Part shown: positions 660 to 23,154 of the stretch, in pieces
How the letters are laid out: the number at the start of each line of letters is the position of its first letter
How positions within the stretch are numbered: position 1 is the stretch's first letter
Source: a virus
Strand: one strand, 5' to 3'
DNA length: 23,154 nt
Virus record (IMG/VR): IMGVR_UViG_3300045927_000062
Coordinates: 1 to 23,154 of that record
Translations under genes and position numbers: made by a program
The notes under the pieces: model-generated
Seen by the model: the letters and a program-made list of their open reading frames with translations, nothing else
Databases searched by the model: none
What the model was told of the DNA's origin: nothing

Positions 660-678
660 CAGGAAGGAAGTGATTCCC

Positions 679-1248
679 ATGCCGAGTAAACAAGTCACGA
701 TCCAGGGCGTGTTGACGTGGGAGGAAGGCGAACCGCCGTCGATCTGGGGCGGGGCGAATCAACCGTTCCCAGGCTACGGTCTCCCAGGGCAACCGCCGGG
801 GATCTGGGGCGGCGGGCCGTTTCCGCAACCGCCGATCCATATTCCGCCGCAACCGCCTGGGATCTGGGGCGGCGCGAATCAACCGTTTCCAGGCTACGGG
901 CTCCCAGGCCGTCCGCCGGGAACGTGGGGCGGTTCGGGCGAGCCGTTTCCTGGCTACGGGCTGCCAGGACCACCGCCGGGGATCTGGGGCGGTGCGAATC
1001 AGCCGTTTCCCGGATACGGATTACCTGGAGGCGGTTCCGGCGGCGGAGGTGAACCAGGGTATCCGGGCGGTCCCAGCGGCGGGATCAATCAGCCGATCGC
1101 GGGTGTGCCGGGTCCAGGCGGCGCCTATGTCTGGTACTGGTCGCCAGCGTGGGGCTGGATTGCGAAGCTCGAGTCCGGGCCTTTGACGCCTGGCAGCGGA
1201 AGCGCGGAGCATCCGGCAGACCTGCCGGAGCCAAAAACGGGCGTCTAG
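679..1248 (+). CDS. Gly/Pro/Trp-rich tandem-repeat protein, unknown function
   Basis: I do not recognise a characterised function. The protein has 189 residues from ATG 679, which follows AGGAAGGAAGTG; an upstream in-frame ATT/ATG-like start at 670 is less likely. Residues 1-17 (MPSKQVTIQGVLTWEEG) form a leader whose near-copy occurs as a separate mini-ORF at 21833-21898. Residues 18-117 are five tandem 20-residue units built on PPGIWGGANQPFPGYGLPG. A Gly-rich linker follows, then an aromatic patch (AYVWYWSPAWGWIAKLE, about residues 153-169) and a charged Pro-rich tail. No signal peptide or membrane helix is seen. Its place between the terminase genes suggests a late, possibly virion-associated or surface-exposed protein; that is inference. 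Low-complexity proteins of this PGIWG type occur in other environmental phages, to my knowledge without an assigned role. Confidence 0.75.
   Translation: MPSKQVTIQGVLTWEEGEPPSIWGGANQPFPGYGLPGQPPGIWGGGPFPQPPIHIPPQPPGIWGGANQPFPGYGLPGRPPGTWGGSGEPFPGYGLPGPPPGIWGGANQPFPGYGLPGGGSGGGGEPGYPGGPSGGINQPIAGVPGPGGAYVWYWSPAWGWIAKLESGPLTPGSGSAEHPADLPEPKTGV
730..1029 (+). repeat. Five 60-bp in-frame tandem repeats
   Basis: Five consecutive 60-base units encode five 20-residue repeats. Units 1, 3 and 5 share IWGGANQPFPGYGLPG exactly; unit 4 is a variant (TWGGSGEPFPGYGLPG) and unit 2 is divergent (IWGGGPFPQPPIHIPP) but keeps exact length. The conserved register and nucleotide similarity indicate duplication within the gene, and copy number could vary by slippage or recombination. 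Confidence 0.92.
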
Positions 1249-3108: not shown

Positions 3109-4962
3109 GTGCTCTCGAACGCGTACGCGCTGCTCGAGGTGAAGTCCGTCGACGCGGAAGCCCGGACAATCACGGGCATGGCGTCGACCCCGTCCCCGGA
3201 TCGGATGGGGGACGAGCTCGATCCGTTCGGCGCCGTCTTTCGGAATCCCCTCCCGCTCCTGCTGCACCACGATCACCACCGGCCGGTCGGCCGCGTCACG
3301 CTCGGGCCCGTGACCGCGAAAGGCATCGCCTTTACGGCGGTCCTTCCTCAAATCACTGAAGCGGGCGCGCTGCGCGATCGGGTGACGGAAGCCTGGCAGT
3401 CGATCAAGGCGGGGCTGCTCACGGGCGTCAGTGTCGGCTATCGCATTCTCGACGGCGGGATCACTCCGCTGGCCAAGGGCGGGGTCCGGCTCACGCGGAC
3501 GGAAATTTGTGAGCTCAGCCTGGTGTCGATTCCCGCGAACCACGAAGCGACGATCTACAGCGTGAAAACGCTCGACGCTCAATATACGGCCGCGATGGGC
3601 CGCGAGGAACCGCGCCGCGATGGGCGCTCGACGAACGGGCAGACCATGACCACGGGAGAACGCATCAAGCAATTTGAAAACTCGCGGGCGGCACGGGTCG
3701 CACGCATGGCGGCGATCATGGAATCAGCCGCCGACGATTCGACGCTCGAGCAAGCGGCGCGGGATGAATACGACGGGATTGCGATCGAGGTCAAGGGAAT
3801 CGATGAGGATCTGATTCGCTACCGGGAACTCGAGCGGGTCCAAGCCGCCGGGGCGACCAGGGTCGAGGGGAACGGGTCGGCGGCCGCGGCCCAGGTGCGA
3901 TCGGGGTCGGTCGTGTCGGTGAAATCGAATGCGCCGGCCGGCTCCGCGTTCGTTCGGAGCACAAAGGTGCTGCTCCAGGCGAAGGGCGATTCGTTCCGGG
4001 CGATGGAGCTGGCGAAGGCGTATCGCGATCCGGATGTGGAACTCCTCGTGAAAGCGGCGGTCGCGCCTGGAAACACCACCGATCCGGCGTGGGCGGGCGC
4101 GCTGGTTCAGATCACGAACCTCACGAACGAGTTCATTGCGTTGCAGCGTCCTGGCTCGATTATCGGCCAAATCGCTTTGAAGAAAGTTCCGCCCAATACG
4201 TCGATACCGATGGTCACGGCCGGCGGTACCTACAAGTGGGTCGGGCAGGGCGGCGCGAAGCCTGTCGGGAAAATGCAATTCGGATCGGTATCGATCGGTC
4301 TGACGAAGTGCGCCGGAATCATGGCGCTCACAGAGGAATTGGTTCGTAGTTCCTCGCCTGATGCGGAGGGGATCATTCGCGACGAAATGATCAAGGGGAT
4401 CAACGCGTTCCTTGATCAGCAATTTACCGATCCAACGGTGGCGGCGGTCGCGAACGTCTCGCCGGCGTCAATCACGAACGGCGCGCCGACGACGGCAAGC
4501 CTGGACGATCCGGCGAAGGATATCGGGGCGCTCGTGGCGTACTTCTCGAGCAACGGTCTACCGTTGGCGGGCCTGACGATCATCATGTCGGAAAAGAACG
4601 CCTATGCGATGGGCGCGAAAACGAACGCGCTCGGGGCGCCGGCGTTTCCGGGGGTCGGGGCGACTGGTGGAAGCTCGATGGGCGTCAAGATCGTGGCGTC
4701 CAACGTCGTCGGGGCGAACGTGATTGCGCTCGCACCGAATTACGTCCTGCTCGTGGACGAAGGCGGGGTGTCAATCGACGTTTCGCGCGAGGCATCCGTC
4801 CAGATGTCCGATACGCCGGTGTCCCCGACGGATGCCACGGCGGTCTGGACGTCGTTCTTTCAGGAGAACCTGGTCGGGATCAGGGCGGAACGCTACATCA
4901 ACTGGAAAAAGGCGACCAATACGGCCGTCTACTACCTCACGGATGCCGTGTACGCCGTCTAG
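3109..4962 (+). CDS. Fused HK97-type prohead protease and major capsid protein
   Basis: One 617-residue protein joins two head functions that are usually separate. Residues about 1-155 are an HK97-type (U35) prohead protease with His53/His54 in LLLHHDHHRPVGRV and the Ser140 motif LSLVSIPAN. Residues about 165-260 are a charged helical linker (TGERIKQFENSRAARVARM and on) that matches the scaffolding delta domain. From about 285 onward is the HK97 capsid fold, including the IPMVTAGGTYKWVGQG and CAGIMALTEELV segments and a C-terminal GIRAERYINWKKA strand. The start is GTG 3109 with a weak ribosome site. The protease must cut the fusion to free mature capsid protein, probably in residues 250-290. 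Such fusions are known in some HK97-like phages. The gene lies before the portal, unlike the usual portal-protease-capsid order. Confidence 0.92.
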   Translation: MLSNAYALLEVKSVDAEARTITGMASTPSPDRMGDELDPFGAVFRNPLPLLLHHDHHRPVGRVTLGPVTAKGIAFTAVLPQITEAGALRDRVTEAWQSIKAGLLTGVSVGYRILDGGITPLAKGGVRLTRTEICELSLVSIPANHEATIYSVKTLDAQYTAAMGREEPRRDGRSTNGQTMTTGERIKQFENSRAARVARMAAIMESAADDSTLEQAARDEYDGIAIEVKGIDEDLIRYRELERVQAAGATRVEGNGSAAAAQVRSGSVVSVKSNAPAGSAFVRSTKVLLQAKGDSFRAMELAKAYRDPDVELLVKAAVAPGNTTDPAWAGALVQITNLTNEFIALQRPGSIIGQIALKKVPPNTSIPMVTAGGTYKWVGQGGAKPVGKMQFGSVSIGLTKCAGIMALTEELVRSSSPDAEGIIRDEMIKGINAFLDQQFTDPTVAAVANVSPASITNGAPTTASLDDPAKDIGALVAYFSSNGLPLAGLTIIMSEKNAYAMGAKTNALGAPAFPGVGATGGSSMGVKIVASNVVGANVIALAPNYVLLVDEGGVSIDVSREASVQMSDTPVSPTDATAVWTSFFQENLVGIRAERYINWKKATNTAVYYLTDAVYAV

Positions 4963-17511: not shown

Positions 17512-17746
17512 GCGGCGTCTTCCCTGCGTCGATGATCGAGGTCAGAATATCAATGCACTCCAGGCCGAGCGCGCGCGCATACTTTCCGAGACTCTCGACC
17601 GTGCCGGCGTCGCCGGCTTCGATGGTCTGGACCGTCTTGTAGGTCGGCCCGCCGTTGCGTTCGACGTCGATCGGGCGCCACTTGCGGTTGAGGCGGTAGC
17701 GCTGCAGCGTTTGCCCCACGGCGACCCACAGTTCCTCATCGGTCAC
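17306..17746 (-). CDS. Putative phage repressor (XRE-type HTH)
   Basis: The protein carries an N-terminal lambda-repressor-like HTH: LWVAVGQTLQRYRLNRKWRP then IDVERNGGPTYKTVQTIEAG and TVESLGKYARALGLECIDILTSI. A short middle region (TPLTPEAAHVVRKLYGTTVAG) follows and then a Pro/Arg-rich tail of doubtful nature. There is no LexA-type Ser/Lys autocleavage domain. Open frame extends to TTG 17818 with a GTG at 17785, but GTG 17746 is chosen because a TATAAT box ends six bases before it, which gives a leaderless mRNA of 146 codons as for lambda cI from its maintenance promoter. It is divergent from the Cro-like gene and would shut the rightward early promoter. Confidence 0.7.
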   Translation of the reverse strand: MTDEELWVAVGQTLQRYRLNRKWRPIDVERNGGPTYKTVQTIEAGDAGTVESLGKYARALGLECIDILTSIIDAGKTPLTPEAAHVVRKLYGTTVAGRTALLGVSDALPWAAETTGPAPIPGDAGPRRAPRPPRPGPRGVTRRTAR

Positions 17747-17752
17747 CTCGAC

Positions 17753-17782
17753 ATTATAGAAAACTTCTTCTAGCGCTGTCTG
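17753..17782 (-). promoter_or_regulatory. Promoter of the repressor gene (PRM-like)
   Basis: On the minus strand CAGACA (17782-17777), an 18-base spacer and a perfect TATAAT (17758-17753) lie so that transcription should start at or next to GTG 17746. The -10 region is part of a 16-base element (17753-17768) that recurs, inverted, at the Cro-side promoter. Confidence 0.6.
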
Positions 17783-17810
17783 CACCCTTACCCCACTACC
17801 GGTTGTTGTT

Positions 17811-17887
17811 GGAATCAAATCCTACCATAGATTTTAATTCCTTGACATGCGCGGAGAAGTTTCCTATTTTCTCGGGAATGAATTTCC
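17811..17887. promoter_or_regulatory. Candidate operator cluster of the lysogeny switch
   Basis: Three GGA-N6/7-TCC elements occur: 17811-17822 (GGAATCAAATCC), 17853-17864 (GGAGAAGTTTCC) and 17875-17887 (GGAATGAATTTCC), the last covering the Cro-like start codon. An inverted pair GGAATCAAAT ... ATTTTAATTCC also spans 17811-17841. They are imperfect dyads of the size bound by XRE-type dimers. The exact operator unit cannot be fixed by eye. Confidence 0.4.
17842..17870 (+). promoter_or_regulatory. Rightward early promoter (PR-like)
   Basis: A perfect TTGACA (17842-17847), a 17-base spacer and TATTTT (17865-17870) lie just before ATG 17878. The expected start of transcription is at or one base before the ATG, so the Cro-like mRNA is probably leaderless. 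The spacer and -10 hold the shared element AGAAGTTTCCTATTTT (17855-17870), a candidate operator. Confidence 0.75.
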
Positions 17888-18090
17888 GTGAACTTCGGGA
17901 GCACGCCGGCATCACGCAGTACCGGCTAGCCCGACTGAGCGGCGTCGAACAGACGACGATCAGCCAGATCGAGCTGGGCAAAGTGCGGGATCCGCGCTGG
18001 TCCACGATTTCGGCCCTCGCGACGGCCCTTAATGTCGCCCCTGGGACCGTCGCGAAGGCTATTCAAGAAACGGCCAGGAAGATCGCATGA
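17878..18090 (+). CDS. Cro-like XRE-family regulator
   Basis: At 70 residues the protein is little more than one helix-turn-helix: NFRELREHAGITQYRLARLS, GVEQTTISQIELGKVRDPRW and STISALATALNVAPGTVAKA, the classic XRE pattern. ATG 17878 is chosen over an upstream open frame to TTG 17803 because a strong promoter ends seven bases before it and the HTH begins at once. It is the first gene of the rightward early operon and is divergent from the repressor. A Cro-type role, repressing the repressor promoter, is inferred. The stop overlaps the next gene's start (GCATGATGG). Confidence 0.85.
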   Translation: MNFRELREHAGITQYRLARLSGVEQTTISQIELGKVRDPRWSTISALATALNVAPGTVAKAIQETARKIA

Positions 18091-18299
18091 TGGAGAGCCC
18101 GTATCTGACGGCGCGCGAGACCCTCGCCTATCTGCGGATCGGCTCCCAGTCGGCGCTCTATCGGCTCATCCGGGAACATGCCCTGCCGTTCTGCCGGGTG
18201 GGACGGCTGTATCGCTTCGATCGGCGGGAGCTGGACGCGTGGATGCGGGGGTTCGGGTCTGCCCTGGAGCAGGTGCGTCATGAACGCCGGAGTGCCTGA
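18087..18299 (+). CDS. AlpA/excisionase-family HTH protein
   Basis: The 70-residue protein has the helix-turn-helix 17 pattern: YLTARETLAYLRIGSQSALY, RLIREHALPFCRVGRLYRFD and RRELDAWMRG, with the GR-x-YRF wing and the closing D-AW helix. This family includes excisionases, AlpA regulators and terminase-associated DNA binders. It is translationally coupled to the Cro-like gene in the early operon. That makes it a second candidate directionality factor besides the gene next to the integrase. Two in-frame ATGs (18087 and 18090) are equivalent. Confidence 0.82.
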   Translation: MMESPYLTARETLAYLRIGSQSALYRLIREHALPFCRVGRLYRFDRRELDAWMRGFGSALEQVRHERRSA

Positions 18300-18328
18300 G
18301 ATGTTCCGTTGGCGGCAGCAGGACGGCG

Positions 18329-19081
18329 ATGTCCCACAAGATGACTGAGCTGGTCTGGAATCTGGATGCGGATGTGGTCACGACGAACGAGCGGATCATC
18401 CTGGTCTGCCTGGCCGACTACTGCCGTGAGCACGGCCGGGAGGCGTGGCCGGCGTGGTCGACGATCGTGACGCGGACCTCGCTGGGGCGAAACACCGTCT
18501 GGCGGTGCCTGAACCGGCTCAAGCGGATCGGCATCCTCCAGGCGTCCGGCCGGACCCGGCGCGGCACGGTCGTCTACCGTCTGAACGTGGATCGAGTGGT
18601 CGATCTGGGCCGGACTCGACCAGTCCCAAAGCTTGGGACTGGTGGGACTGGTGGGACTGGCTCAGAAACTCCACTAGTTCAACAGCTTAGGACTGGTGGG
18701 ACGCTCCCAGCTCCCTCCCGTCCCACCCAGAAACTCGACCAGTCCCACCCAGAGACCCCCCCAGTCCCAAAGCTTGGGACTGCACCAGTCCCAAAGCTTG
18801 GGACACGATCCGGTATTGATCCGGAATTGAACCGGAATAAGAGCGCGGCTGTCGCCGCGAAGAGTCTCTCCCCCTTTTCGGAGAAGACAGAAAAGGCACC
18901 GGACAAAGCCAAAGCCAGACCGAGAACCTGGAACCCCGACCGGACGACGAAGCACGAACCGGGGAAGACCGACTACGGGGACGATCAACCCCCGCTCCTC
19001 ACGGACCACCCCGACCTGATCAAAGCCTGGATTGAACGCTGGTATCCCGAAATGCTCGAGGAAGGCCTGGTGGAGGACTGA
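18329..19081 (+). CDS. Replication initiator-like winged-helix protein with internal origin
   Basis: The 250-residue protein begins with a winged-helix domain (residues about 5-90: MTELVWNLDADVVTTNERII through STIVTRTSLGRNTVWRCLN, then RLKRIGILQASGRTRRGTVV), as in phage O-like replication initiators (helix-turn-helix 36). Residues about 97-160 are low-complexity and contain PVPKLGT three times, because the DNA beneath them is a repeat cluster. A charged linker and an acidic C-terminal helix (DLIKAWIERWYPEMLEEGL) follow, possibly for contacting a helicase loader. ATG 18329 has AGGACGG upstream. Position between the Cro-like module and the RecT gene fits an initiator. As in lambda O, the protein probably binds the iterons within its own gene. 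Confidence 0.75.
   Translation: MSHKMTELVWNLDADVVTTNERIILVCLADYCREHGREAWPAWSTIVTRTSLGRNTVWRCLNRLKRIGILQASGRTRRGTVVYRLNVDRVVDLGRTRPVPKLGTGGTGGTGSETPLVQQLRTGGTLPAPSRPTQKLDQSHPETPPVPKLGTAPVPKLGTRSGIDPELNRNKSAAVAAKSLSPFSEKTEKAPDKAKARPRTWNPDRTTKHEPGKTDYGDDQPPLLTDHPDLIKAWIERWYPEMLEEGLVED
18619..18839 (+). other. Candidate phage replication origin (iterons plus 11-mers)
   Basis: An inverted repeat with 11-bp arms (ACCAGTCCCAA, AGC, TTGGGACTGGT) occurs at 18619-18643. A degenerate copy lies at 18673-18697 (5 mismatches of 25), and near-perfect copies at 18760-18784 and 18784-18808, the last two 24 bases apart. Extra half-sites GTGGGACTGG fill 18643-18660, with more at 18690-18750. Directly after come three 11-mers, GATCCGGTATT, GATCCGGAATT and GAACCGGAATA (18807-18839), a lower-GC, GATC-bearing block that could be the unwinding element. 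Iterons plus a melting region inside an initiator gene is the lambda-type origin plan. Confidence 0.75.
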
Positions 19082-19082
19082 A

Positions 19083-19832
19083 ATGGCTGACGCGCTGCGC
19101 CTCGTCGACGCGACTCCGGCTGTCACCGCGGATCAGGTGGCCCTCATCAAGACGACCATCGCCAAGGATGCGACCGACGACGAATTGAAGTTGTTCTTCT
19201 ACGACTGCCAGCGCCAGGGCGTGCATCCGCTCGACCGGTTGATTCATTTCACGAAGCGGGGCGGGAAGTACACGCCGATCACCTCCATCGACTTTCTCCG
19301 TCAGCGCGCGGCGCAGACGAACGAGTGCGCCGGGATCGACGACGCCGTCTTCGTCGGCGATCCGAAGACGCCGGCCTTTGCGGCGACGGTCACGGTCTAT
19401 CGGCTCGTCCAGGGCCAGCGCTGCGCGTTCACGGCGACGGCGCGCTGGAGCGAGTACAAGCCCGAGGCGAACGATTTCATGTGGGCGAAGATGCCGCACG
19501 TCATGCTGGGCAAGGTGGCCGAAGCGCTGGCGCTCCGCAAGGGCTTTCCCCAACAGCTCGCCGGCCTCTATGCGACCGAGGAGCTCGACCAGGCGGCGGG
19601 CCGCGAGCCGATCCCCGGCGCGGAGACCACGATTTCCGCCGCCCAGCGCAAGCGCCTGTTTGCGATCGCGCTCTCTCACGGCTGGGGGAAGACCGACATG
19701 CAGGCCGCCTTGCTCGAGCGCTTCGGCCTGCGCCGGACGGCGGACATTCGCGCCGCCGACTACGACGAGATCGTGCGCGCGTTCGAGCAGCCGCCTGCCG
19801 CGGTCGCGCCGGAGGCGGATCAGCCGTTCTGA
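19083..19832 (+). CDS. bet: RecT/Bet-family single-strand annealing protein
   Basis: The 249-residue recombinase starts at ATG 19083, just after the upstream stop, although the frame is open from 19032. The family core is clear: LIKTTIAKDATDDELKLFFY, a Cys-Arg-Gln-Gly-Val-His-Pro segment, TSIDFLRQRAAQTNECAGID, CAFTATARWSEYKP and WAKMPHVMLGKVAEALALRK with FPQQLAGLYATEELDQA. The C-terminal 60 residues (ISAAQRKRLFAIALSHGW, then ALLERFGLRRTADI and YDEIVRAFEQ) form an added helical domain. It anneals complementary ssDNA during phage recombination or replication restart. No partner 5'-3' exonuclease is recognisable in the window; the DUF1064 nuclease at 21876 is the only other candidate. Confidence 0.88.
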   Translation: MADALRLVDATPAVTADQVALIKTTIAKDATDDELKLFFYDCQRQGVHPLDRLIHFTKRGGKYTPITSIDFLRQRAAQTNECAGIDDAVFVGDPKTPAFAATVTVYRLVQGQRCAFTATARWSEYKPEANDFMWAKMPHVMLGKVAEALALRKGFPQQLAGLYATEELDQAAGREPIPGAETTISAAQRKRLFAIALSHGWGKTDMQAALLERFGLRRTADIRAADYDEIVRAFEQPPAAVAPEADQPF

Positions 19833-19844
19833 CGGAGGACGCCG

Positions 19845-20282
19845 ATGACCCTCATGTCTCGCCGGCAACTCGTGTTCCTCGTGCTCCTGAGTGCCAGTGG
19901 CTGCCTGCTGCAAGGCTGCGAGGACGAGATCACGATCGTGGCGCCGACCGCCCCAGACCCGCCCCCGTCCCCGATTCCCGATCGGGTCGAGTTCCGGGTC
20001 CTCGGCACGTTCGAGTCCGTCACCGTCCGCCATGTGACGGCGCAAGATGGCACGGCGGTGGTTGAAACTGGGTTACCGTTTTTCAGTGCGTTCCAGACGA
20101 CGTCGGCGCAAATGTTCTTGTCCCTGACCGTGCAGGCAAACGGAGATGGATTTCTCCAGCTCCAAATTCTCGTCAATGGCAACGTGGTGCGCGAAGCGAC
20201 CAGTACGACCGACGATCCGCATCTCGCCATCTCTGTCACGTATCGGCGCGGGGATCAGCCGTCCGTCCCAGTTCCCGTTTGA
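19845..20282 (+). CDS. Predicted secreted lipoprotein
   Basis: This 145-residue protein has a type II signal peptide: MTLMSRRQ, then the hydrophobic LVFLVLLSASGCLLQGC. Two possible lipidation cysteines, Cys20 (ASGC) and Cys25 (LQGC), both differ slightly from the consensus lipobox. A Pro-rich tether (VAPTAPDPPPSPIPD) leads to a beta-rich domain of about 100 residues (VEFRVLGTFESVTVRHVT, MFLSLTVQANGDGFLQLQIL). GGAGG precedes ATG 19845. A membrane-anchored lipoprotein inside the early/recombination operon is odd; superinfection exclusion or host envelope modification is a reasonable guess, with no direct sequence match to known exclusion lipoproteins. Confidence 0.75.
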   Translation: MTLMSRRQLVFLVLLSASGCLLQGCEDEITIVAPTAPDPPPSPIPDRVEFRVLGTFESVTVRHVTAQDGTAVVETGLPFFSAFQTTSAQMFLSLTVQANGDGFLQLQILVNGNVVREATSTTDDPHLAISVTYRRGDQPSVPVPV

Positions 20283-20295
20283 CGAATTGTGCTGT

Positions 20296-20533
20296 GGCAA
20301 GGTCTGGGGCGGCAAGGCTAGGTGGGGCAGCGTTCGGTGCGGTGTGGCACGGCACGGCATGTCATGGTCCGGTCTGGCGCGGCTTGGTGTGACTGGGTCC
20401 GGTAGGGTGTGGCAGGGCGCGGTACGTAGCAGGCTGGGTTAGGCGCGGCGGGATGTGGCAAGGCTTGGTCAGGCAAGTCATGGGTCTGGCAGTGGTCGGG
20501 TTTGGCGGGTTCGGGTCTGGTATGGCAGGGCTT
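20296..20533 (+). repeat. Pentanucleotide-phased G-rich array A (GGYNN)
   Basis: This gene-free stretch can be cut into 5-base units without slack. From 20296 to 20425 there are 26 consecutive units (for example GGTCT, GGCAC, GGTGC, GGCAT): 22 start GGY, base 1 is G in 25 of 26 and base 3 is C or T in 25 of 26, while bases 4 and 5 vary. After a one-base slip near 20431 the pattern continues to about 20533 with further slips. The period is not a multiple of three, so frames through it are not coding. It lies just upstream of the gene at 20555. Confidence 0.88.
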
Positions 20534-20554
20534 TTCTGAAGGGATGGTGGCGGC

Positions 20555-21175
20555 ATGGCGACAACAGTCACGGCGATCGGTCCAGAGGTCACGAACGGCG
20601 CAAAAATTCTCATCGAAACGACGGTGCCCTATGGGGCCATCGTCGAGATCACGGGCACCGCTGATCTGCTCTTCCATCGGTGGAATGTCGAAGCGGTGGA
20701 AGCGAAGGGCAAAGCCGCAAAGGGGAGCAAGGCCAAGAAAACCGATGATCTCGAAAGCTATGTCTATCGGGATGATCACGGGATGCTGGCCATCCCCGGT
20801 GAATATCTCCGGCAGTCCATCATCAACGCGGCCAAGTATCGCCAGGACCCGCGCAGCCCGCGCAAGAGTGCGATGGATCTCTTCAAAGCGGGGATTGTCA
20901 CGCTCACGCCTCTAGCTTCGCTCGGCGTAACAGAGTGGACATACGAACACAAGTGCCGCGTGACGGTGCAACGCAACGGCATCACCCGCGTGCGGCCCGC
21001 GATCAAAGCGGGCTGGAGCACCAGCTTTATCTTTATGGTCAATCTCCCTGAATACATCCCGCCCGATGTGTTGCATGACGTGTTGATCAACGCGGGGCGC
21101 TTGATCGGCGTGGGGGATTCGAGACCCACCTATGGCCGATTCCAGGTCACACGGTTCGAATTGACGGGGCTGTAG
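20555..21175 (+). CDS. Conserved-looking protein of unknown function between two pentamer arrays
   Basis: I do not recognise a named family for this 206-residue protein. It looks well folded and alpha/beta: GAKILIETTVPYGAIVEITG, TADLLFHRWNVEAVEAKGKA, a Lys-rich loop (AAKGSKAKKTDD), YVYRDDHGMLAIPGEYLRQS, IINAAKYRQDPRSPRKSAMD, and a C-terminal PEYIPPDVLHDVLINAGRLI with DSRPTYGRFQVTRFEL. There is no signal or membrane helix. The IPGEYLR and AAKYRQDPRSPRKS motifs recall proteins near RecT genes in other temperate phages (from memory). AAGGGATGG precedes the ATG. Being placed between two similar G-rich arrays, its product may bind them or the DNA/RNA made from them. The basic loop suits nucleic-acid binding; this is a hypothesis. 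Confidence 0.85.
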   Translation: MATTVTAIGPEVTNGAKILIETTVPYGAIVEITGTADLLFHRWNVEAVEAKGKAAKGSKAKKTDDLESYVYRDDHGMLAIPGEYLRQSIINAAKYRQDPRSPRKSAMDLFKAGIVTLTPLASLGVTEWTYEHKCRVTVQRNGITRVRPAIKAGWSTSFIFMVNLPEYIPPDVLHDVLINAGRLIGVGDSRPTYGRFQVTRFELTGL

Positions 21176-21179
21176 TCTT

Positions 21180-21446
21180 GGCGTGGTCTGGTCGGGTGAG
21201 GCATGGTCGGATGCGTCGGGGCCGGTTTTGGTCGGGCGCGGTTTGGTGCGTCATGGTACGGTGAGGCCAGGCCGGATCAGGTCCGTCATGGTCGGGTGAG
21301 ATCCTGCCGTGTCAGGGTTGGGTATGGCGGGTTGGTGGCGGGGCAAGCTCGGGTCCGGTTCGGTGCGGCATGGCATGGTCGGATCAGATAGGGCGTGATT
21401 GGGTCGGCTTCGATTAGGCGGGGGCATGGTCGGGTTCGGCAGGGTA
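21180..21446 (+). repeat. Pentanucleotide-phased G-rich array B (GGYNN)
   Basis: The second array follows five bases after the stop of the 206-aa gene. From 21180 to 21304 there are 25 consecutive 5-base units (GGTCT, GGTCG, GGTGA, GGCAT, GTCAT and others). Base 1 is G and base 3 a pyrimidine in all 25; 18 are GGY. The pattern then slips phase and continues (for instance GGTCC GGTTC GGTGC GGCAT GGCAT GGTCG) to about 21446. Same strand bias and same consensus as array A, but not a direct copy. No gene is credible in it. Confidence 0.88.
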
Positions 21447-21487
21447 AAGGCATGATGCGACGGGTTGATGGCGCGCCAGGCGAGAGC

Positions 21488-21682
21488 ATGACCGGCACGG
21501 TCAGCGGACTCAAGCTCGAGAAGGGCTACGGCTTCATCACCGGTGACGACGGCGTCGAATACTTCTTCCATCGCACCGATGCGCCCGATTTCGACCGGCT
21601 CACTGCCGGCGTGCGCGTCGTCTTTCTGACGCGCGGCGGCGCGAAGGGGCCGAGGGCGGGCTCGATTGAACTCGAGGCATGA
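21488..21682 (+). CDS. Cold-shock-domain protein
   Basis: This 64-residue protein is a single cold-shock (OB-fold) domain: TGTVSGLKLEKGYGFITGDD with the RNP1-like KGYGFIT, then VEYFFHRTDA as RNP2-like, and a final RVVFLTRGGAKGPRAGSIEL. Such proteins bind ssDNA or RNA and melt structure. ATG 21488 begins at the usual family start; an in-frame ATG at 21452 with AGGGTAAAGG upstream would add 12 residues. It follows array B closely, so it may act on transcripts from the arrays or serve as an ssDNA-binding helper for the RecT protein. Its stop overlaps the next ATG. Confidence 0.88.
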   Translation: MTGTVSGLKLEKGYGFITGDDGVEYFFHRTDAPDFDRLTAGVRVVFLTRGGAKGPRAGSIELEA

Positions 21683-21879
21683 CGACCGACGACGACATCG
21701 CGAGGATGCTCGACGAACTCTGCGACCGCTATCTCACCGGCGACCGCACGATCTGGGTCCGGCCGAAAGTGCGGCACGACATTGCCGTCCTCGTCTATCT
21801 GTGCACGAAACTGCTGAAGGGAGCGAGGCCCGATGCCAGCCAAACACGTCACGATTCAGGGCGTGATGGCGTGGGATGA
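21679..21879 (+). CDS. Small unknown protein
   Basis: The 66-residue protein starts within the stop of the cold-shock gene (ATGA). The first 47 residues are plausible (TTDDDIARMLDELCDRYLTG, DRTIWVRPKVRHDIAVLVYL, then CTKLLKG), mostly helical. The last 19 overlap the start of a mini-ORF and look less natural. No family is recognised. It belongs to a chain of tiny overlapping early genes. Confidence 0.55.
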   Translation: MTTDDDIARMLDELCDRYLTGDRTIWVRPKVRHDIAVLVYLCTKLLKGARPDASQTRHDSGRDGVG

Positions 21880-21898
21880 ACGCGAGCCGGCGGAATAA
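21833..21898 (+). CDS. 21-residue mini-ORF, near-copy of the repeat-protein N-terminus
   Basis: ATG 21833, with GGGAG nine bases upstream, reads MPAKHVTIQGVMAWDEREP-A-E and then TAA. It matches the first 21 residues of the Gly/Pro/Trp repeat protein at 679 in 13 of 21 positions, including KxVTIQGV and W. It may be a remnant of a duplicated or truncated paralog, or an independently expressed leader-like peptide. It overlaps the end of the preceding gene and the start of the following one in other frames. Confidence 0.5.
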   Translation: MPAKHVTIQGVMAWDEREPAE

Positions 21899-22241
21899 GT
21901 ACGGAGCGCGCGCGCTCGAGCTCGAGGGGATCCGCTTTGACTCCAGGCGGGAGGCGGCACGGTATCGGGAGTTGCAGTATCTGACGGCGGCCGGACTGAT
22001 TCAGGAGCTCGAGGTCCATCCGCGCTATCCGTTGATGGTACTGGCGCTCTATCAGGATGGACCGCCGTGGGTGTTTCGCACGGTCGGGCACTACACCGCA
22101 GATTTCCGATATGTCGACGTCAGCTCCGGCGAAGTCGTGGTAGAGGATGTGAAGAGCCGGCCGACCAGGACGACCGCCTATCGATTACGGAAACGCCTGG
22201 TGGAAGCGATGCACGGTGTGGCGATCCGCGAAGTGGATTGA
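21876..22241 (+). CDS. DUF1064-family nuclease-like protein
   Basis: The 121-residue protein matches the phage DUF1064 pattern: NKYGARALELEGIRFDSRRE, AARYRELQYLTAAGLIQELE, HPRYPLMV, then HYTADFRYVDVSSGEVVVED and VKSRPTRTTAYRLRKRLVEA. Asp in ADFRY and the later E-D-V-K fit a PD-(D/E)xK-type active site. Family members are suspected endonucleases in phage replication/recombination regions. The start overlaps the mini-ORF. It may cut or resolve DNA in concert with the RecT protein; not proven. Confidence 0.82.
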   Translation: MNASRRNKYGARALELEGIRFDSRREAARYRELQYLTAAGLIQELEVHPRYPLMVLALYQDGPPWVFRTVGHYTADFRYVDVSSGEVVVEDVKSRPTRTTAYRLRKRLVEAMHGVAIREVD

Positions 22242-22246
22242 CGGCG

Positions 22247-22573
22247 ATGCAGTATTGTTCGGCTCCGGGCTGCTCGAGTGTGGTGCGATCCGGTCGGTGT
22301 CGGAAGCATCTCGGGTCGAACGATCAATTGCTCGGCAAGCGCTGGCGCCGGCGATCCGTGGCGTTTCGACAGCGCTATCCGTTATGCGGGATGCGGGCGA
22401 ACGGGGATCGACCGGTGATGTCGCGGTGTTTCGAAGGAGGACGAAGTACCGTGGCGACACAGGTCGATCACGTTCGGCCGCACTCTGGCGACCCGGCGCT
22501 CTTCTGGGACGAAGCGAACTGGCAATCGCTGTGTACCGCGTGCCACATGCGCAAGACGAGAGCGGGATTGTGA
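22247..22573 (+). CDS. HNH endonuclease
   Basis: The 108-residue protein has a Cys-rich N-terminus (CSAPGCSSVVRSGRCRKH), then RYPLCGMRANGDRPVMSRC, and the HNH core VDHVRPHSGDPALFWDEANW with Asp74-His75, Asn91 and CTACHMRK (Cys96, Cys99, His100). Six cysteines support zinc binding. ATG 22247 begins the Cys-rich part; upstream frame is a shadow of the previous gene. HNH proteins next to the small terminase are part of the cos-cleaving packaging machinery in HK97-like phages, and this gene would be upstream of terS if the genome ends are joined. Confidence 0.88.
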   Translation: MQYCSAPGCSSVVRSGRCRKHLGSNDQLLGKRWRRRSVAFRQRYPLCGMRANGDRPVMSRCFEGGRSTVATQVDHVRPHSGDPALFWDEANWQSLCTACHMRKTRAGL

Positions 22574-22749
22574 CGTCCACCTCAGAGCTGGCCTGCCCAC
22601 GGTGCGGCGAGACGCGGTTGCTCGAGCGGGGGGACGGGGGGGGTGGGGGTGCCTGGGTCTATTGCGCGGTGTGTGCCTATACCTTCCAGCCACCACCGCC
22701 GCCGCTGGACCTGCTGGTCCGCGTCGTCACGAGACTCGAACGATGGTGA
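22570..22749 (+). CDS. Small zinc-ribbon protein
   Basis: This 59-residue protein starts at GTG 22570, inside the HNH stop (GTGA). It reads ACPRCGETRLLERGDGGGGG, WVYCAVCAYTFQPPPPPLDL and ends LVRVVTRLERW. CPRCG and CAVC form a four-Cys zinc ribbon with a Gly-rich loop between. The partner is unknown; DNA or protein binding near packaging is possible. Confidence 0.65.
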   Translation: MTSTSELACPRCGETRLLERGDGGGGGAWVYCAVCAYTFQPPPPPLDLLVRVVTRLERW

Positions 22750-22973
22750 AGCGGCCGGCCTGGTTCAACGCGCGCGTGCGAGAAGATGAGGAAGCGATCC
22801 AGATCTTGGACGCCGCGATCCTGCTCATCGATGCGTACGAGCGGTTGTATCTCTACCTCGATCATCGTCCGCATTGTGGGGGGAGTGAGTGTACCTGCGG
22901 GCTCGTCCAGGCCTTGCATGGGGCGCGGATCGCGAGCCGGCGGATCCAGGCGGCCAAGCCTCGTGTTCAGTAG
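22743..22973 (+). CDS. Small Cys/His protein of unknown function
   Basis: ATG 22743 overlaps the zinc-ribbon gene by seven bases. The 76-residue protein has an acidic helix (REDEEAIQILDAAILLIDAY) and a Cys/His cluster, HRPHCGGSECTCGLVQALHG (H-x2-H-C-x4-C-x-C), likely to bind a metal, then a basic C-terminus (ARIASRRIQAAKPRVQ). No family is recognised. It is the last gene before the gene-free right end. Confidence 0.6.
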   Translation: MVKRPAWFNARVREDEEAIQILDAAILLIDAYERLYLYLDHRPHCGGSECTCGLVQALHGARIASRRIQAAKPRVQ

Positions 22974-23031
22974 GGTTCGACGGCTCAAGATGATCGGTGA
23001 TCGTGAGGCAGAAGGCATCGAACGGTGATGG

Positions 23032-23067
23032 GGATCACGAAAACATGAATAAAAACGGTCGTGATCC
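23032..23067. repeat. Inverted repeat GGATCACGA ... TCGTGATCC
   Basis: Perfect 9-bp arms at 23032-23040 and 23059-23067 are separated by 18 A-rich bases. A related GGTGATCGTGA occurs at 22996-23006. The region 22974-23154 has no gene, so this is probably a protein-binding or packaging element. Confidence 0.6.
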
Positions 23068-23130
23068 GGGTCACCAGCCGTAAGTGCCGGTATTTGCGAG
23101 GCTTACACCGACCGGGGGGTGCATAAAAGT

Positions 23131-23145
23131 GTGTAAAATTTACAC
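23131..23145. repeat. Palindrome GTGTAAA-A-TTTACAC near the right end
   Basis: A 15-base dyad with 7-bp arms lies nine bases from the window end. Around it, GACCGGG (23110-23116, within a longer G run ending GTG) pairs with CACCCGGTC (23143-23151), forming a larger imperfect dyad. It may be an operator or part of the packaging region that is joined to the left end in the circular form. Confidence 0.55.
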
Positions 23146-23154
23146 CCGGTCGAC

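What the first reader, a model, noticed from the sequence alone, without database searches (positions are those of the whole stretch)
20296..21446. Two pentanucleotide-phased GGYNN arrays flank one gene
Both intergenic stretches around the 206-aa gene at 20555 break into 5-base units. In uninterrupted runs of 26 and 25 units, base 1 is G (25/26, 25/25) and base 3 is a pyrimidine (25/26, 25/25), while bases 4-5 are free. A decayed simple repeat would lose all positions equally, so constraint on G1 and Y3 suggests something reads the DNA or RNA in 5-base steps. Two units are close to one helical turn. Possible roles: a nucleating track for an annealing/ssDNA-binding filament (some RecT-family complexes are, as I recall, organised in about 5-bp steps), a structured ncRNA, or a recognition track for the flanked protein. 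Nearby RecT and cold-shock-domain genes fit a nucleic-acid-handling role.
Basis: partly seen in the sequence, partly recalled or inferred. Interest (0 to 1): 0.88.

Follow-up and report, generated by a model that had tools for sequence, protein, structure and literature searches.

The report
Phage VIPR RNA-guided anti-phage locus
The odd 5-base rhythm on both sides of this phage gene is a set of RNA guides for a recently described CRISPR-like protein (Vipr) that phages appear to use to find and silence genes of rival phages, here possibly a rival's coat-protein gene.

Summary
Lag-5 periodicity has z about 6 in both flanks; over 102 units base 1 is G in 101, base 3 is a pyrimidine in 100, and bases 4-5 are nearly uniform. 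It is a VIPR locus, a kind reported in April 2026 (PMC13142463). The 206-aa gene is Vipr: its family profile matches the solved SUSP1 Vipr chain (36pp, E 1.9e-10), and its predicted fold is a Cas7/Csm3 RAMP (Z 12). The flanking tracks are GGY/NN guide arrays. Such arrays flank the gene in 25 of 26 viral and 33 of 34 bacterial-genome relatives; conversely, 89 of 120 viral stretches found only by the pattern (GGYNN)9 encode a Vipr homologue. The published decoding rule (pair NN, skip one base) holds in this clade: 11 independent strong guide-target matches, against 2 and 1 for other spacings and 0 for shuffled guides. So decoded, 16 units of the upstream array (20331-20410) match the antisense strand of the capsid gene of sibling phages (26/32; 1 of 2000 permutations): suggestive, not proven. 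RNA was not tested; no 3' tail, promoter or accessory gene was recognised. Verdict: new member of a known, very new kind.

The parts
20291..20533 (+). Upstream guide (vrRNA) array: 48 GGYNN-type units with three 1-base slips
   Evidence: Lag-5 periodicity; unit segmentation and base counts; same-strand arrays at this place in most relatives
20331..20410 (+). Best-supported single guide: 16 units whose NN letters, read with a 1-nt skip, match the antisense strand of sibling-phage capsid genes
   Evidence: 26/32 in L200, reached by 1 of 2000 unit-order permutations in the sibling set; skip 0/2 reach 22/21; skip bases fall on codon wobble positions (frame read from the window's capsid ORF). Not significant against the full 6.3-Mb set
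20555..21175 (+). vipr: 206-aa single-RRM RAMP protein (Cas7/Csm3-like fold) with a glycine-rich loop G185-F196
   Evidence: phrog_4652 E 1e-15, a family that SUSP1 Vipr also hits; profile match to PDB 36pp SUSP1 Vipr E 1.9e-10; hhalign to SUSP1/LNA6 Vipr prob 97.4, E 1e-11; fold Z 12.2 to type VII and Csm Cas7 subunits
21175..21447 (+). Downstream guide (vrRNA) array: 54 GGYNN-type units with three 1-base slips
   Evidence: no confident target found
4290..4337 (-). The window's own capsid-gene site homologous to the proposed target (antisense strand); it matches its own guide less well than many siblings do
   Evidence: 21/30 for the window against 22-24/30 for many siblings over units 7-21

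Best explanation
This is a VIPR (Viral Interference Programmable Repeat) locus of a temperate phage. The flanking tracks are transcribed into guide RNAs. Vipr subunits line up along the RNA, one per 5-base unit, gripping GGY and presenting the two NN bases. The NN pairs bind double-stranded DNA two bases at a time, skipping one base, so a run of up to about 16 units specifies a gapped site that often skips codon wobble positions. Binding blocks transcription of the target gene. Shown here: the protein's family and fold, the arrays, their linkage to the gene, and the 1-nt-skip match excess in this clade. Inferred from the published SUSP1 work: RNA, assembly and silencing. Suggested here: one upstream guide aims at the major capsid gene of sibling phages.
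For: Family: profile hit to solved SUSP1 Vipr, profile-profile match, RAMP fold. Arrays: adjacent to the gene in 25/26 viral and 33/34 genome loci, with almost none elsewhere in those loci; the same detector finds exactly four arrays in SUSP1, one upstream and three downstream, as published. Reverse association: 89 of 120 pattern-only loci encode a Vipr homologue. Code: clade guides give 11 independent matches of at least 20/22 with skip 1, against 2 (skip 0), 1 (skip 2) and 0 (shuffled). Targets lie in phage DNA-metabolism genes: single-strand-binding protein, helicase, ParB/methyltransferase. Window guide to sibling capsid 26/32, 1/2000 permutations. Temperate-phage context: integrase and excisionase.
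Against: No RNA data. No conserved 3' tail, sigma-70 promoter or conserved accessory gene was found. Runs of 26 units exceed the 9-16 units per vrRNA reported, so guide borders are unknown. The window's capsid match is imperfect, its guide length of 16 was set after first matches had been seen at other lengths, and it is not significant against the whole 6.3-Mb set. Exact 8- and 9-unit seed scans of viral contigs found no better target.
Confidence: 0.93

Rival explanations
1. A VIPR locus by descent, but decaying: the protein or the array no longer works in this phage.
For: Six 1-base slips break the array phase, base 2 is G in only 78/102, no promoter or tail was found, and no perfect target was found.
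Against: The ORF is intact with the family's invariant residues; base 1 and base 3 are kept at 99% and 98% over 102 units; slips also occur in relatives.
Confidence: 0.06
2. A DNA track that nucleates a RecT/annealase or single-stranded-DNA-binding filament in 5-base steps.
For: A RecT gene lies about 460 bp upstream of the array (19032-19832).
Against: Arrays follow the Vipr gene across unrelated hosts and gene contexts, and in this clade the NN letters carry target information by the 1-nt-skip rule, which a filament track would not need.
Confidence: 0.005
3. A decayed simple pentanucleotide repeat without function.
For: The unit is short and the tracts are intergenic.
Against: Constraint is strongly uneven across the five positions and phase is held over 26 units; the same unevenness recurs beside the same gene in distant phages.
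Confidence: 0.005

Closest known systems
VIPR system of Escherichia phage SUSP1 (type II; PMC13142463; Vipr structure 36pp)
   Same: Homologous single-RRM RAMP protein with the same glycine-rich loop (GVGD.RP..GRF), phage-borne, flanked on both sides by GGY/NN arrays on the coding strand
   Different: About 29% identity over the aligned part; window arrays are longer and nearly gapless (26-unit runs against 14-17 units), no conserved 3' tail and no vap1-like neighbour recognised
Staggered (overlapping) VIPR arrays mentioned in PMC13142463
   Same: Long arrays in which guides may overlap, as the window's long runs suggest
   Different: Only named in the main text; the supplementary figure could not be read here, so the type of this clade is not assigned
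Class 1 CRISPR Cas7/Csm3 RAMPs (type III-A Csm3, type VII Cas7)
   Same: Fold: Z about 11-12 over about 160 residues
   Different: No CRISPR repeats or cas genes recognised beside it, about 12% identity, guides coded in 5-base units instead of spacers

Membership tests
VIPR | Vipr protein: small single-RRM RAMP homologous to known Viprs | tested here: met
   Profile match to PDB 36pp SUSP1 Vipr E 1.9e-10; hhalign prob 97.4; Cas7/Csm3 fold
VIPR | Flanking noncoding arrays of alternating GGY and variable NN | tested here: met
   102 units, G1 101, Y3 100, NN near-uniform; relatives
VIPR | NN letters specify a target with a 1-nt skip | tested here: met
   Clade level: 11 independent matches of at least 20/22 against 2, 1 and 0 in controls. 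For the window itself: one suggestive match
VIPR | vrRNA of 9-16 repeats followed by a conserved 3' tail | tested here: inconclusive
   Proposed guide is 16 units, but runs are longer and no shared tail was seen by eye in the window or L001; the paper reports other array architectures
VIPR | Accessory vap gene (typical, not universal) | tested here: inconclusive
   No conserved neighbour that includes the window apart from genes shared with L001 or L012; the adjacent cold-shock gene is unique to the window in this set
VIPR | vrRNA transcribed and bound by Vipr; silencing of target | not testable with these tools
   Needs RNA and cells
VIPR | Carried by phage or prophage | tested here: met
   Terminase, portal, capsid, integrase and RecT genes in the same record
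CRISPR-Cas (class 1) | CRISPR array with near-identical repeats and spacers | tested here: not met
   No such array among the window's tandem repeats; Rfam has no match at 17700-23154

The most novel reading that the evidence does not exclude
This clade is a distinct VIPR design: a single protein without accessory gene or guide tail, using a continuous track on which overlapping registers of up to 16 units each act as guides, with capsid and DNA-replication genes of sibling phages as targets.
Probability: 0.2. Interest if true: 0.7.

Novelty: new member of a known kind. Interest (0 to 1): 0.55.

Why it matters
VIPR was reported only in April 2026, with experiments on an enterobacterial phage and a Pseudomonas prophage system, and is proposed as the ancestor of CRISPR. 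Here a tool-less reading of raw sequence pointed to it independently. The analysis adds a large clade in viral contigs and in genomes of Phycisphaerales, cyanobacteria, Alicyclobacillus, candidate phyla and others, and independent sequence support for the 1-nt-skip code outside the clades tested in that paper. Its apparent targets (single-strand-binding protein, helicase, methyltransferase, possibly capsid genes of sibling phages) fit the proposed role in phage-phage conflict and make it testable.

Tried and rejected
Rfam search of 17700-23154: nothing at E up to 1, so no hammerhead ribozyme there. RNA folding: upstream z -0.7, downstream z -2.3, no convincing structure. Promoter/terminator scan: no promoter; terminator-like sites lie inside genes, none at an array end. 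PADLOC and NCBIfam give no name to the 206-aa protein. Exact seeds from window guides in viral contigs: 0, 1, 21 and 14 hits; the 36 loci found extend no further than chance. Decoding guides as wobble codons against sibling proteins: the upstream array's best score was reached by 16 of 400 permutations, the downstream array was not notable. Maximum-match statistic over all held loci: not significant for the window alone, and that set included loci picked by the seeds themselves. Skip 3 was dropped from the tests because an array matches itself at that spacing. The Foldseek/VIA lists do not show 36pp; its release date is not given by these tools, so its absence says nothing. Supplementary files of the VIPR paper were not readable, so the VIPR type was not assigned.

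Full report
What was checked first. Both intergenic stretches around the 206-aa gene show strong 5-base periodicity: autocorrelation at lags 5, 10, 15 and 20 is 0.43-0.49 against about 0.32 in 1000 dinucleotide shuffles, z 4.4-6.0, and these two stretches are the strongest of the whole window. Segmenting them gives 48 units at 20291-20533 and 54 units at 21175-21447, broken by six 1-base slips. Base 1 is G in 101 of 102 units, base 3 is C or T in 100, base 2 is G in 78, and all 16 dinucleotides occur at bases 4-5.

What it is. A text search for pentanucleotide repeats in phages returned a preprint of April 2026 (PMC13142463) that describes VIPR: a phage-borne RAMP protein, Vipr, with guide RNAs made of alternating GGY and variable NN, in which the NN letters pair with DNA and one target base is skipped between pairs. 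The window fits. Its protein hits PHROG 4652, which SUSP1 Vipr also hits. A profile of 23 relatives finds one chain in the Protein Data Bank, 36pp 'SUSP1 Vipr protein', E 1.9e-10, and aligns to SUSP1/LNA6 Vipr with probability 97.4; the glycine-rich loop GVGDSRPTYGRF corresponds to GVGDWRPRFGRF in SUSP1. The predicted structure (mean pLDDT 78) matches Cas7/Csm3 RAMP subunits of type III and type VII CRISPR complexes, best Z 12.2 over about 160 residues.

Linkage of gene and arrays. A simple detector of GGY-phased units finds arrays beside the gene in 25 of 26 viral relatives and 33 of 34 relatives in bacterial genomes, with almost none elsewhere in those loci. The two exceptions, L018 and L176, sit on contigs cut at one end of the gene, so one flank of each cannot be seen. 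On SUSP1 the detector returns exactly four arrays, one upstream and three downstream, the number and places reported from RNA sequencing. In the other direction, of 120 viral stretches found only by the DNA pattern (GGYNN)9, 89 encode a Vipr homologue.

Does the published code hold in this clade? All 11-unit guides from the clade's arrays were compared with all held DNA under skips of 0, 1 and 2 bases. After merging related guides and targets, matches of at least 20/22 number 11 for skip 1 (four of them 21/22), 2 for skip 0, 1 for skip 2, and 0 for shuffled guides with skip 1 (first pass 155, 5 and 3 raw hits). The best-matched runs extend over roughly 11-16 units. The strongest targets lie in sibling or rival phages: a single-strand DNA-binding protein gene just upstream of vipr, a DEAD-type helicase gene, a ParB/methyltransferase gene in a contig that itself carries VIPR, and an unnamed gene.

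The window's own targets. No held locus gave a near-perfect match. In phages fetched by similarity to the window's terminase, before any capsid match had been seen, 16 units of the upstream array (20331-20410) match the antisense strand of the major capsid gene: 26/32 in L200; skips 0 and 2 reach 22 and 21; 1 of 2000 unit-order permutations reaches 26. The skipped bases fall on codon wobble positions, judged from the capsid reading frame, as the paper reports for its targets. The same site recurs at 22-24/30 in many siblings and at 21/30 in the window itself. Reservations: the number of units was not fixed in advance, the siblings are homologous and not independent, and against the full 6.3-Mb set the match is unremarkable. 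I regard it as a likely but unproven target family; the exact target phage is not in hand. Exact seed scans of viral contigs for this and other window guides found nothing further.

How it most likely works. By analogy with SUSP1, the arrays are transcribed, Vipr coats the RNA one subunit per 5-base unit, the NN pairs read double-stranded DNA with one base skipped, and the bound complex blocks transcription. The one-subunit-per-unit step is my inference from the RAMP fold. No nuclease partner was recognised beside vipr, apart from phage HNH and resolvase-like genes further downstream that L001 shares. Transcription, RNA borders and silencing were not tested. No sigma-70 promoter, array-end terminator or shared 3' tail was recognised, and no conserved accessory gene; the 26-unit runs suggest overlapping guides, an architecture the paper mentions.

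Verdict. A new member of a known but very recent kind. Confidence that this is VIPR is about 0.93; that the capsid gene of sibling phages is among its targets, about 0.6.

Noticed in passing
window 670-1248 (+): ORF of 192 aa next to the terminase genes with a degenerate 60-bp tandem repeat (726-1019), coding about 20-aa units such as PFPGYGLPGxPPGIWGG; no PHROG match
   Followed up: no
window 21488-21682 (+): Cold-shock-domain gene directly after the downstream array; the ORF list's GTG start at 21395 lies inside the array, so ATG 21488 or 21452 is more likely. Not found beside vipr in the relatives compared
   Followed up: partly
window 19845-20282 (+): 145-aa ORF resembling a lipoprotein (N-terminal LSASGCLLQGC) between recT and the upstream array; a relative occurs near vipr in L012 only
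   Followed up: no
L012 5605-6181: A very long downstream array of more than 100 GGYNN units with few slips, far beyond the 9-16 units per guide reported
   Followed up: no
L021 4691-4811: The upstream array lies on the strand opposite to vipr, unlike nearly all other relatives
   Followed up: no
L027-L146: 31 of 120 stretches with (GGYNN)9 show no Vipr homologue by the profile used; some contigs are cut, others may hold distant Viprs or orphan arrays
   Followed up: no
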